DNA of 64,000 nucleotides, taken from contig NZ_PEJS01000002.1 of the NCBI RefSeq assembly GCF_002750975.1, positions 186,001 to 250,000 of the forward strand. Reading direction: 5' to 3'. Positions 542 through 45,755 of this stretch are shown in pieces. Origin of the DNA: Stenotrophomonas indicatrix. GTDB lineage: Bacteria > Pseudomonadota > Gammaproteobacteria > Xanthomonadales > Xanthomonadaceae. Position 1 is the stretch's first letter, and each line of letters opens with the position of its first letter. The notes beneath the pieces were generated by a model. It searched no databases and had not been told where the DNA came from. It was given only the letters and a program-made list of their open reading frames with translations. Both the position numbers and the translations under genes were made by a program.

Positions 542-2173
542 TCAAGCGCCGAGACTGCGCGCGGTGTTGATGATGTTGATGCCGTTGAAACGGGTGGTGG
601 ACGAACCGTGCGAGACCGCCGACACCTGGCCGGGCTGGCCCTTGCCGTCGAAGAACGAACCGCCAAGACGGAAGTCGCGTTCATCGCAGATGGCGGTGCA
701 GGCGTTCCAGAACTCCGGCGTGCGGATCTGGTAGGCCGCATCCTCGACCATGCCGGTGATCTTTCCGTTCCTGATCTGGTAGTACAGCTGGCCGCCAAAC
801 TGCGCGTTGTAGCGCTGCTGGTCGATGGAGTACGAGCCGCGGCCATGGATGTATATGCCGTTCTCCACGTCCTTGATCATGTCCTCCACGCTGAGCGGCG
901 TCCTGCCCGGCGCCAGCGAGACATTGGCCATGCGCTGGAACTGCACGCTGGACCACGAGTCGGCATAGCTGCAGCCATGCGAGGCGTCGCGGCCGAGGAT
1001 GTGGGCCTCATCGCGCGTCGCCTGGTAGTCGACCAGGATGCCGTCGCGCACCAGGTCCCAGCGCTGGGTCTTCACCCCTTCGTCGTCGTAGCCGACCGCG
1101 CCGAGGCTGCCCGGCTGGGTCTTGTCGGCGAAGAAGGTGACGATGTCGCTGCCCCAGCGGAAACCGGCATCGCGCTTGTCCAGGGTGGCGAAGCTGGTGC
1201 CGGCGTAGTTGGCCTCGTAGCCGAGCACGCGGTCCAGTTCCAGCGGGTGGCCGACATTCTCGTGGATGGTGAGGAACAGGTTGGACGGATCCAGCACCAG
1301 GTCGTACTTGCCGGGCTTCACCGAGGGCGCCTTCAGCTTCTCGCGCGCTTGGCGGGCGGCTGCGATGGCGTCCTCGACCGGGTCATAGGAATCACGGTAC
1401 GCAGTGATGCCACCGGGCAGCTGCACCTTGCCGCGTGCATCGCCATCAAGGAACTCGTAGCCCATGCCCATCGGCGAGGACAGGCCGGCGCGGGTGCGGA
1501 ACTTGCCGCTGGCCTTGTCGATGGCGGTGGCGGTGAACGGCAGCCAGATACGGTGGATGTCCTGGTCGATGAACGAGCCGTCGCTGGAAGCGAAGTACTT
1601 CTGCTCGTTGACCAGGAACAGGGTGGAATTGATGTAGTCGGCACCCGCATTCAGTGCGGCCGCATTGAGCGCCAGCAGCAGCTCGACCTTGTCCTGGATC
1701 GGCACTTCCATCGCATTGCGGCGGATGGGTGTCTGCCAACGCACCTCGCCGACCGCCGAGGTGGGCGCCAGCTGCACCGGGCGGGACTGGATGCTGGCAT
1801 TGGCGCGGGCGATGGCGGTGGCCTGTTCGACGGCGGTGCGCACCGCCGCTTCGGTCTGCTGGTGGGTGGCGGCGAAACCCCACGCACCGTTGACGATCAC
1901 CCGCACGCCCACACCGGACGATTCGCGGTTGGTCACGTTGCCGACCTGGTGCTCGCGGGTGATCACCGACTGGTTGAGGTAGCGCCCGATGCGCACGTCG
2001 CAGTAGCTGGCCTTGGCCGAACGCGCGGCAGCGAGGGCGACCTCGGCCAGGCGCCGGCGCTTGGCCGGGTCGACCGGGGCCAGCAACTGCTCGGCGGCGA
2101 TCAGCCGCGAATGCGGCAGGGCCAGGCCCGCCAGGCCCAGAGCGGAAAATGCCAGGAACTCACGTCGTTGCAC
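542..2173 (-). CDS. TldD-family zinc metallopeptidase, Tat-exported
   Basis: 543 residues, GTG start. A twin-arginine signal (QRREFLAF followed by a hydrophobic run to about residue 27) implies Tat export. The zinc-site motif HENVGH (HExxxH) sits near residue 304, as in TldD. Family members cleave modified or unfolded peptides, usually as TldD/TldE heterodimers. Here the likely partner is the closely similar gene directly downstream, and the pair looks like a tandem duplication. Substrate unknown. The 5' side faces a 700-base repeat-rich intergenic region. Confidence 0.9.
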   Translation of the reverse strand: MQRREFLAFSALGLAGLALPHSRLIAAEQLLAPVDPAKRRRLAEVALAAARSAKASYCDVRIGRYLNQSVITREHQVGNVTNRESSGVGVRVIVNGAWGFAATHQQTEAAVRTAVEQATAIARANASIQSRPVQLAPTSAVGEVRWQTPIRRNAMEVPIQDKVELLLALNAAALNAGADYINSTLFLVNEQKYFASSDGSFIDQDIHRIWLPFTATAIDKASGKFRTRAGLSSPMGMGYEFLDGDARGKVQLPGGITAYRDSYDPVEDAIAAARQAREKLKAPSVKPGKYDLVLDPSNLFLTIHENVGHPLELDRVLGYEANYAGTSFATLDKRDAGFRWGSDIVTFFADKTQPGSLGAVGYDDEGVKTQRWDLVRDGILVDYQATRDEAHILGRDASHGCSYADSWSSVQFQRMANVSLAPGRTPLSVEDMIKDVENGIYIHGRGSYSIDQQRYNAQFGGQLYYQIRNGKITGMVEDAAYQIRTPEFWNACTAICDERDFRLGGSFFDGKGQPGQVSAVSHGSSTTRFNGINIINTARSLGA

Positions 2174-2321
2174 AGCGTCTCTCTCTCACTTCCGTGCGGC
2201 CGGCAAAGGACCGATCCGATCACGTCAACTCCTCGACTTTCGCCAGCGGCGGACATTCGGGCAAGTGACTGCAGTCATGGTCGGGGAGGGTTTCGGCAGG
2301 GCTTGCAGCCCTGCACCTGTT

Positions 2322-2344
2322 GTAGTGCCGGCCGCTGGCCGGCA
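2322..2344 (+). repeat. SMAG-type REP palindrome
   Basis: GTAG followed by TGCCGGCCGCTGGCCGGCA, the commonest version in this window. Confidence 0.85.
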
Positions 2345-2392
2345 ACCTCAGCAGCAACGTCAACGTCAAAAGCGGGCATTCCGTGGGTGGGC

Positions 2393-2488
2393 GGGGCGGT
2401 GTCGGAGTGCGGGGACGCCGTGAATCCGTCCATGGAGGCTTGGCAGCCGCATCCATGCGGCTGACACCCCGCACTCCGACACCGCCCC
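2393..2488 (+). repeat. Long palindromic repeat, copy A
   Basis: Perfect 22-bp outer arms (2393-2414 and 2467-2488) enclose a 52-base loop. The loop contains an inner hairpin (AGCCGC/GCGGCT around CATCCAT). Reverse-complemented, it matches the loop of copy B (2680-2731) at 44 of 52 positions, while the outer arms of the two copies are unrelated in sequence. Confidence 0.8.
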
Positions 2489-2564
2489 ACCTCTGACAGA
2501 TCTCCGCGGCTGTTGGTAGGTGTCGACCTTGGTCGACACATCTGTCAGGTATCGAAATAAATCT

Positions 2565-2605
2565 GGGGTCAGATCCGTTTTCCGCAGGAAAACGGATCTG
2601 ACCCC
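2565..2605. repeat. GGGGTCAGA palindrome, copy 1
   Basis: A 41-base inverted repeat with termini GGGGTCAGATCC and GGATCTGACCCC and a TCCGCAGG centre. Related copies lie at 28235-28273 and 30808-30847. This copy is next to a GTAG-headed palindrome at 2516-2540. Confidence 0.75.
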
Positions 2606-2661
2606 AAGAGCCGACCCCAAGAGCCGTTCCAGCAGATCGCGGAAAACTGTCGAAGGCGGGA

Positions 2662-2749
2662 TGGGTCCGGTGGCGGGGGTGTCCGCGGCATGGATGCCGC
2701 GGCCAAGCCCCCAAGGACGGGTTTACGGCGTCCCCCGCCACCGGACCCA
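2662..2749 (-). repeat. Long palindromic repeat, copy B (inverted)
   Basis: Perfect 18-bp outer arms (2662-2679 and 2732-2749) around a 52-base loop, the same loop length as copy A. The inner hairpin differs from that of A at two base pairs, and both members of each pair change together (A-T to C-G, C-G to G-C), so pairing is preserved. Confidence 0.8.
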
Positions 2750-2886
2750 CCCCGCCATCCCGCAGGAAGCCAGCTTCTGCTGTTGCTCCGGCAGTTGCCG
2801 CGGCCTCTGCAGGTGCAGGGCGCAGCCCTGCCGAGCAACACCCCCCTCGTGCACAATGAAGCCGACCCCGCCTGGACGCCGTCTCG

Positions 2887-3508: not shown

Positions 3509-3607
3509 GTAGTGCCGGCCGCTGGCCGGCAACTACCGGTAGTGCCGGCCGCTGGCCGGCAACACATTGTCCGGGAAGGGCAGATGCCGGCCAGCGGCCG
3601 GCACTAC
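3509..3607. repeat. SMAG REP cluster (two direct, one inverted)
   Basis: GTAG-headed TGCCGGCCGCTGGCCGGCA copies at 3509-3531 and 3539-3562 and an inverted copy at 3584-3607. They lie between the 3' ends of two convergent genes, a usual position for REP elements that may also end transcripts. Confidence 0.85.
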
Positions 3608-45287: not shown

Positions 45288-45755
45288 GGCTGGGGCTCCG
45301 TGCAGGACAGACGGTAGCCGCCACACAAAGGTGGCGGGCGGAGACGTGGCTCGAAAACCGGGACAATGAACCGGCAGGCACAAGGCCTCCACGCTCCGCC
45401 CGCCGCAGCCGGCAGACGGATTGCCGACCGACGCCACGCGAGGTGGCGTCGGCCGGCAAGCGCAATCACTTCATTGTCGATACGGGTTTTCGAGGCCCGG
45501 CCGCCCCAGATGAGGCGGCTCGTCATCTGTACCTGTGCCGACGCGCAGTGCCAATCAGAAGAGTTGCATTCAATGCTTGATGCAAGACGCGTTCGGCATT
45601 CTTGCATGCTGTTAAGCCGCCCCAGACGCCGATGGCGCAAGGGCCCTCAGCGATAGAGGAATATGCGACATGGGTCGTGATTGCCGGCGTAGTTGGCTGA
45701 GACGTCAGCGAGGCAATAACGACAGAACGCTGCGATTGGGCGATACAGCGTGGTG
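45288..45755. other. Gene-poor spacer of 468 bases
   Basis: Open frames exist on both strands but lack coherent protein features. The one clear structure is a perfect 10-bp hairpin at 45428-45452 (CCGACGCCAC-GCGAG-GTGGCGTCGG). Local base composition is less GC-rich than the neighbouring core genes. Confidence 0.5.

What the first reader, a model, noticed from the sequence alone, without database searches (positions are those of the whole stretch)
2290..2840. Structured long-palindrome element, two inverted copies with compensating base changes
Copies A (2393-2488) and B (2662-2749) have unrelated outer arms (22 and 18 bp) that are each perfectly self-complementary, and loops of exactly 52 bases that match at 44 positions. 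Two loop differences fall on both partners of inner-hairpin pairs (A-T to C-G, C-G to G-C), so pairing is maintained. Flanks are similar too, in inverted orientation. This looks like a repeat under selection for a two-tier stem-loop, not for sequence. I do not know a published name for it.
Basis: seen in the sequence. Interest (0 to 1): 0.72.

Follow-up and report, generated by a model that had tools for sequence, protein, structure and literature searches.

The report
Dispersed repeat with paired CsrA-type loops
The two palindromes are copies of a widespread DNA repeat that, read as RNA, folds into a long hairpin displaying two loops that match the known landing site of the global regulator CsrA/RsmA, so this genome may carry well over a hundred scattered binding sites for one regulator.

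Summary
A covariance model finds at least 161 copies in this Stenotrophomonas genome; 54 of 55 close pairs are inverted the same way. The family reaches 46 of 276 sampled Gammaproteobacteria. Stems covary strongly: in copies from other genera the outer arms share 32% mean identity yet are 98% paired. On one strand both inner hairpins end in C[ANGGAN]G, with A, GG and A fixed and both N free: the published high-affinity CsrA/RsmA hexaloop. 145 of 147 copies without a nested insert keep ANGGAN in both loops. Non-Watson-Crick pairs on that strand are mostly G.U (39 against 7 A.C). Some relatives score as Rfam TwoAYGGAY, which shares a clan with CsrB and was already proposed to bind CsrA; the window copies do not reach that model. 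It is not a GTAG REP and not the published S. maltophilia TIRs. Transcription and RsmA binding are untested. In single copies the GGA strand is mostly antisense to the nearest gene, against a simple 3'-UTR role, and a DNA-level role of the loops stays open.

The parts
2390..2491 (-). Copy A, whole hairpin (GGA strand is the minus strand)
   Evidence: R1 match G000:C2:188386-188499:- (window 2386-2499), 118.9 bits
2393..2414 (.). Copy A, outer arm 1 (22 bp, perfect)
2467..2488 (.). Copy A, outer arm 2
2445..2462 (-). Copy A, inner hairpin HP2; hexaloop ATGGAT at 2451-2456 on the minus strand
2425..2436 (-). Copy A, inner hairpin HP1; hexaloop ATGGAC at 2428-2433 on the minus strand
2652..2759 (+). 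Copy B, whole hairpin (GGA strand is the plus strand)
   Evidence: R1 match G000:C2:188647-188760:+ (window 2647-2760), 117.5 bits
2662..2679 (.). Copy B, outer arm 1 (18 bp, perfect)
2732..2749 (.). Copy B, outer arm 2
2683..2702 (+). Copy B, inner hairpin HP2; hexaloop ATGGAT at 2690-2695
2710..2721 (+). Copy B, inner hairpin HP1; hexaloop AAGGAC at 2713-2718
2285..2850 (.). Block absent from the same gap in two genomes of the genus (empty site, or deletion)
   Evidence: L294, L295; one search finds no R1 match there
2521..2538 (.). Spacer between A and B: palindrome just after GGTAGG, GTAG-type REP
   Evidence: type by comparison with REPs
2564..2606 (.). Spacer: GGGGTCAGATCC-type palindrome, like the inverted repeats beside a Y1 transposase gene in S. 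maltophilia D457

Best explanation
The pair is two copies of a dispersed, probably mobile, non-coding repeat whose GGA-strand RNA is a two-site CsrA/RsmA ligand. Read as RNA, a long outer stem of arbitrary sequence holds a junction with two short hairpins. Each hairpin ends in an ANGGAN hexaloop directly on a C-G pair, and the two sites lie about 23 nt apart, so that one RsmA dimer could clamp both. Selection keeps the loops, the junction letters and the pairing, and lets stem letters drift. With at least 161 copies in this genome, transcripts that read the GGA strand would titrate RsmA or tether it to particular transcripts. Shown here: copy number, covariation, loop conservation, strand-specific wobble bias, shared places with TwoAYGGAY in other genomes, a near-canonical RsmA in this genome. 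Inferred: transcription of the GGA strand, RsmA binding, any effect on RsmA-controlled genes, and the way the repeat spreads.
For: Loops: of 161 own copies 142 have C[ANGGAN]G in both hairpins; of the 19 others 14 carry a nested insert in one loop (two of them partial matches), 3 have intact ANGGAN with a changed closing pair, and 2 have a real loop mutation. The HP2 loop was not in the pattern used to pick the 93 copies of A2, and it is ATGGAT in 93 of 93. In 57 copies from 47 loci of other genera, 53 have both sites (52 by the script plus L155, which shows a third chance match); N takes all four letters and X varies. One exception, L152, has an AGGGA pentaloop. PMC4005645 (passages read) defines the high-affinity site as an ANGGAX hexaloop placed directly on a stem, with N and X variable, and cites AGGGA pentaloops as high affinity too. 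Covariation. G.U against A.C on the GGA strand: 52 against 10 cells, 39 against 7 where a copy differs from its nearest neighbour (p 1.8e-6); 57 against 14 in other genera. Rfam: RF01731 TwoAYGGAY and model R1 mark the same place and strand in 6 of 10 RF01731 loci (five at 68.8-79.7 R1 bits, L283 weakly at 30.4); three of the six (L277, L284, L283) are above Rfam's cut-off. RF01731 and CsrB share clan CL00106. CsrA: 45 of 46 element-bearing class genomes have it against 197 of 230 others (Fisher one-sided p 0.012). The own RsmA matches RsmE 2jpp and other solved CsrA chains.
Against: No RNA or binding data. By a crude gene caller, single copies have the GGA strand antisense to the flanking genes in 15 of 21 tandem gaps and sense only to the farther gene in 18 of 21 convergent gaps, so the nearest transcript reads the complement. 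One element-bearing genome, G322 (a draft, 98% complete), shows no credible CsrA even at E<=10 (one 15.9-bit match below the cut-off). Nested inserts land inside the ANGGAN loops, which suggests that the loops are also read as DNA. The strand bias would arise equally if single-stranded DNA were recognised. 15 of 22 element-bearing genomes gave no RF01731 match.
Confidence: 0.6

Rival explanations
1. DNA-level element: the hairpin with its ANGGAN loops is the recognition or strand-transfer site of an unidentified transposase or single-strand nuclease acting on the GGA strand; likeness to the CsrA site is a coincidence or secondary.
For: Two unrelated inserts sit in the ANGGAN loops of 14 of 161 own copies; at the junctions that could be read they follow ANGG and replace AY, up to a G or two of ambiguity. 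Copies occur as inverted pairs, 54 of 55. Two empty sites.
Against: No Y1 transposase in cis: 0 of 43 loci at E<=0.05, and 0 of 19 more below E 1e-3 (two weak matches, 23.8 and 18.6 bits); other transposase types were not searched. It leaves the agreement with the ANGGAX rule, including both free positions, unexplained.
Confidence: 0.3
2. Generic REP-like palindrome: a bidirectional terminator or 3'-end stabiliser in which only stable pairing matters.
For: Position: 41 convergent, 38 tandem and 6 divergent gaps among the 85 classified units (against 1:2:1, p 3.4e-7). Folding of about -80 kcal/mol on both strands.
Against: Loop and junction letters are conserved across families although the arms are not. 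No run of T follows A or B (sequence; not checked for the other copies). Pairing alone predicts no strand bias, but G.U exceeds A.C.
Confidence: 0.2
3. Mutational origin of the perfect arms: template switching inside the hairpin and conversion between copies keep the arms complementary without selection.
For: At the orthologous locus copy A changes subfamily as a block between species.
Against: It predicts no G.U/A.C strand bias and does not explain the conserved loops. It may still add to selection.
Confidence: 0.15

Closest known systems
TwoAYGGAY RNA, Rfam RF01731 (clan CL00106)
   Same: Long outer stem, junction, two hairpins with A-N-GGA-N loops in the same order (alignment); same places and strand as model R1 in G402, G330, G225 and weakly G017; CsrA binding already proposed (PMC4333381, passages read).
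   Different: Window copies are not reported even at E<=10. Here it is a high-copy paired repeat; in Weinberg 2010 (PMC2864571, table row seen) it is listed as a probable RNA in human gut, gamma-Proteobacteria and Clostridiales.
CsrB / RsmX-Y-Z type RsmA-sequestering sRNAs, and RsmU of Xanthomonas
   Same: GGA sites predicted or shown to hold CsrA/RsmA.
   Different: Those are dedicated RNAs (RsmU: one 3'-UTR, Xanthomonas only, PMC7694677, passages read); this is a repeat with two sites per unit.
Self-complementary TIR families of TIRYT genes in S. maltophilia (PMC3733652, abstract, section 16 and passages read)
   Same: Palindromic, abundant, often close together; one such palindrome lies between A and B at 2564-2606.
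   Different: The repeats beside the two D457 genes are GGGGTCAGATCCCTTTCGC and AAAAGGGGACGGAGGGG types with no convincing match to this element.
GTAG REPs (SMAG) with RAYT
   Same: Intergenic palindromes in the same genome, often beside the element.
   Different: Short, tagged GTAG; all four own Y1 genes are flanked by these and none by the element.
Ysr224, Rfam RF02770
   Same: Model of a Yersinia sRNA matches the complementary strand of B and A (32.3 and 26.5 bits).
   Different: Below its cut-off of 70 bits; opposite strand.
YPAL/RU-2 of Yersinia (PMC2229807, PMC2267715, passages read)
   Same: 168-bp palindromic mobile repeat.
   Different: Sequence not compared here.

Membership tests
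TwoAYGGAY RF01731 | Score at or above Rfam's gathering cut-off (43 bits) | tested here: not met
   Window copies: no RF01731 match up to E 10. 3 of 18 loci of the order scanned gave 31.7-33.5 bits (L093 appeared in 48 only, where filters were laxer). Relatives in G402: 44.3 and 43.8 bits, met.
TwoAYGGAY RF01731 | Two hairpins with AYGGAY loops on one outer stem | tested here: met
   Copy A: ATGGAT and ATGGAC. Copy B: ATGGAT and AAGGAC, so one loop departs at Y. Family-wide rule is ANGGAN.
CsrA/RsmA high-affinity site | ANGGAX hexaloop directly on a stem (PMC4005645) | tested here: met
   Both loops of A and B; 145 of 147 own copies without nested insert.
CsrA/RsmA high-affinity site | Binds the protein | not testable with these tools
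   Needs EMSA or CLIP.
GTAG REP / REPtron | GTAG tag at the foot and a RAYT gene flanked by the repeat | tested here: not met
   0 of 43 Y1_Tnp loci carry the element; own Y1 genes flanked by GTAG REPs.
S. maltophilia TIR families (ORFs 1152, 4509) | TIR sequence flanking the TIRYT gene | tested here: not met
   D457 loci L419 and L424 have other palindromes. That these are the orthologues of K279a 1152 and 4509 is inferred from position and, for the first, the GGGGWSAS motif; the paper's figure was not readable.
MITE-like mobile repeat | Empty sites in relatives | tested here: met
   L294 and L295 lack window 2285-2850. A deletion is not excluded.
MITE-like mobile repeat | Target-site duplication and a transposase | tested here: inconclusive
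   No Y1 transposase in cis; target duplication not tested.

The most novel reading that the evidence does not exclude
Many gammaproteobacterial genomes carry, some in very high copy number, a mobile palindrome that spreads as DNA but whose conserved cargo is a ready-made two-site CsrA/RsmA ligand. The copies together act as a distributed RsmA decoy or tethering array, so copy number and position tune the Csr/Rsm system, and the repeat is kept by engaging the host's global regulator.
Probability: 0.35. Interest if true: 0.9.

Novelty: new variant of a known kind. Interest (0 to 1): 0.72.

Why it matters
It would turn a little-studied Rfam motif into a numerous structured RNA repeat of Gammaproteobacteria and link repeat spread to the Csr/Rsm regulator. 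In Xanthomonas the authors of PMC7694677 report no homologues of the classical RsmA-antagonist RNAs (passages read), so a repeat-borne source of RsmA sites would bear on an open question. It is testable with one purified protein and two short RNAs.

Tried and rejected
TIR of a tyrosine transposase: PMC3733652 suggested that this might be the self-complementary '1152' TIR family of S. maltophilia; rejected, because the Y1 genes of D457 at 1.19 and 4.56 Mb are flanked by other palindromes.

RAYT in cis: not found in 43 loci. RsmU: a single 3'-UTR RNA of Xanthomonas, judged a different thing from its description; sequences were not compared. miRNA, Ysr and other Rfam matches are below their cut-offs and I take most of them to reflect a long stem; only RF01731 (same strand, architecture and places) and RF02770 (complementary strand) were kept.

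A simple 3'-UTR model (GGA strand sense to the nearest gene) was tested and not supported. Inversion of the pair between species looked possible but is explained by loci held in contig orientation. Rfam over the whole window at gathering found only a C4 RNA.

Literature: searches listed no paper whose title or abstract describes this repeat in Stenotrophomonas or joins TwoAYGGAY with a dispersed repeat; only open-licence papers are held, most were seen as listings only, and figures and supplements were not readable.

Dropped rows: 8 own copies with nested inserts were left out of A2. Palindromic echoes on the opposite strand were removed. At least three nested copies seen (C1:253447, 698186, 2867639) are not among the 161, so 161 and 14 are both lower bounds. 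In one search units with a gene call inside (18) or at an edge (3) were not counted in the orientation classes. The gene caller was home-made and crude. In one search the script misread or missed the junctions of two insert-I copies (C1:403303, 3223501).

Full report
WHAT IS THERE. The two palindromes are exactly as described. They lie in the 0.7-kb gap between a divergent pair of open frames: 543 aa on the minus strand (start 2173), which looks like a TldD/PmbA protein, and 204 aa on the plus strand (start 2887), which looks like a methyltransferase (both names recalled, no family search). The 173 bases between the arms of A and B hold a palindrome after GGTAGG (2521-2538) and a GGGGTCAGATCC palindrome (2564-2606). 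The genus is Stenotrophomonas: same-genus genomes have contigs of the same length as named records, for example G493:C1 and S. maltophilia SJTL3, both 4,891,004 bases.

A FAMILY. The pattern GACGCCGTNAANCCNTCCNTGG with up to 3 mismatches occurs 57+54 times in the genome against 5+5 for the reversed control. A covariance model R1, built from 93 copies aligned by MAFFT, lists 150 matches, its scoring limit; 146 score above 75 bits. After fetching the regions and merging, 161 copies remain, a lower bound. 110 copies form 55 neighbour pairs under 500 bp, and 54 of 55 have the same inverted arrangement, the GGA strands pointing outward. Among 150 genomes of the order, 41 match in 19 of 63 genera. 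Among 276 genomes of the class, 46 match in 41 of 215 genera. Among 299 genomes of the phylum 25 match, all in the own class (how many of the 299 lie outside the class is not shown). In these searches matches per genome were capped at 24, 13 and 12, so copy numbers elsewhere are unknown.

STRUCTURE. RNAalifold gives an outer stem, a junction and two hairpins, HP2 and HP1. On the MAFFT alignment of own copies 97.9% of pair cells are standard, 29 of 37 pairs have two-sided changes, and the covariation score is 0.488 against 0.143 for shuffles and at most 0.073 for slid partners. In 57 copies from 47 loci of other genera, aligned by the model and so leaning to it, the figures are 96.9%, 35 of 37, and 0.944 against 0.202 and at most 0.150. 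One measure there is weaker: further pair types, 17 of 500 shuffles as high. The outer arms of these copies share 32% mean identity, near chance, and the core 70%; helix 1 is still 98.1% paired. These controls do not model the tree.

THE LOOPS. On one strand both hairpins end in C[ANGGAN]G. In own copies HP1 runs through ATGGAT, ATGGAC, AGGGAT, AAGGAC, ACGGAC and so on, with stem changes CC/GG to AC/GT and C-G to U-A that keep pairing. The HP1 loop was part of the first search pattern, so that count is biased; the HP2 loop was not (93 of 93 ATGGAT). R1 should still report copies without GGA, since most own copies score over 90 bits, but a loop-masked model was not run. In the 161 copies 142 have both sites; of 147 without a nested insert, 145 have ANGGAN in both loops. 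In other genera 53 of 57 have both sites, with N and X free; the four exceptions are an AGGGA pentaloop (L152), a CGGAC pentaloop (L160), a lost GGA (L163) and a rearranged HP1 (L087). PMC4005645 (passages read) states the high-affinity CsrA/RsmE site as an ANGGAX hexaloop directly on a stem, N and X variable, and cites AGGGA pentaloops as high affinity too. That is the rule seen here. In the copies of A3 that show both sites, these lie 23 positions apart in all but one (24 in L095:1685). The own genome encodes an RsmA that aligns over its first 53-56 residues to solved CsrA/RsmE chains.

STRAND. Departures from Watson-Crick pairing on the GGA strand are G.U rather than A.C: 52 against 10 cells; 39 against 7 where a copy differs from its nearest neighbour (p 1.8e-6); 57 against 14 in other genera (p 2.7e-7). 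Cells of related copies are not independent. The bias fits selection on a single GGA strand, RNA or single-stranded DNA; strand-biased deamination is not excluded.

KNOWN RELATIVES. Rfam TwoAYGGAY RF01731 matches copies in 3 of 18 loci of the order at 31.7-33.5 bits, below its cut-off of 43 (L093 only), and no window copy. In 22 element-bearing genomes it matches 7, two of them above the cut-off. Six of the ten RF01731 loci fetched coincide with R1 matches on the same strand, five strongly and L283 weakly; L277, L284 and L283 are above the cut-off. RF01731 and E. coli CsrB share clan CL00106. Gardner and Eldai proposed CsrA binding for TwoAYGGAY from motif matches (PMC4333381, passages read; author names recalled). 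The window element is therefore a branch of that superfamily rather than a scoring member of the Rfam family. It is not a GTAG REP and not the published S. maltophilia TIRs.

HISTORY. Of the 30 best loci among 81 genomes of the genus (own included), 28 show both copies and L266 and L275 one each. Copy A changes subfamily as a block between species, and compensated changes such as G-C to U-A occur at orthologous positions; conversion between copies may carry them. Of 11 further loci fetched, four were scanned with R1: L287 has one copy, L286 has lost most of the pair, and L294 and L295 have an empty gap where window 2285-2850 would be. At least fourteen own copies carry one of two unrelated palindromic inserts inside HP2 or HP1; at the readable junctions both follow ANGG and replace AY. 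One insert brings AGGAC and AGGACA loops of its own. This points to a process that reads the loop tip as DNA.

POSITION AND ORIENTATION. By a home-made gene caller, classified units lie in 41 convergent, 38 tandem and 6 divergent gaps; the window site is one of the rare divergent ones. For single copies the GGA strand is antisense to the genes in 15 of 21 tandem gaps (p 0.08) and sense only to the farther gene in 18 of 21 convergent gaps (p 0.0015). So a nearest-gene 3'-UTR reading is not supported; the GGA strand would come from convergent read-through, a separate promoter, or the second member of a pair.

CsrA CO-OCCURRENCE. 45 of 46 element-bearing class genomes have CsrA against 197 of 230 others (one-sided p 0.012). 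The exception G322, a draft, has no match above the cut-off even at E<=10, while two family mates do. The test could have failed and did not, but it is weak.

VERDICT. A real, numerous, strongly covarying repeat whose conserved cargo matches the CsrA/RsmA site twice. Function as an RsmA ligand is the best-supported reading (0.6); expression, binding and effect are untested, and a DNA-level role of the same loops is the main rival.

Noticed in passing
L205, L209, L214, L174, L189 and others (14 of 161 own copies, more seen): Two unrelated palindromic inserts sit inside the ANGGAN loops, after ANGG and in place of AY at the readable junctions; one insert itself has AGGAC and AGGACA loops. Hairpin-tip targeted insertion would be worth its own study.
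   Followed up: partly
L246-L275: At the orthologous locus copy A changes subfamily as a block between species, which suggests conversion between dispersed copies.
   Followed up: partly
window 45327-45410 (-): C4 antisense RNA (Rfam RF01695, 52 bits).
   Followed up: no
L419 and L424 (S. maltophilia D457): Y1 transposase genes flanked by GGGGTCAGATCCCTTTCGC and AAAAGGGGACGGAGGGG inverted repeats, apparently the published TIR families; a relative of the first also lies between A and B in the window.
   Followed up: partly
window 608-2464 (+) and similar ORFs: Long, probably spurious open frames run into or across the repeat; such frames could be mis-annotated as proteins.
   Followed up: no
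L357: A contig titled Bacillus subtilis SK7B5 carries the strict element pattern, outside the otherwise gammaproteobacterial list; possible contamination.
   Followed up: no
window 2295-2320 and 2810-2832: A GCAGGGC-type hairpin flanks the pair in inverted orientation on both outer sides.
   Followed up: no
window 2322-2346 and 3510-3606: GTAG REPs (TGCCGGCCGCTGGCCGGCA type) lie beside the element and after the plus-strand gene.
   Followed up: no
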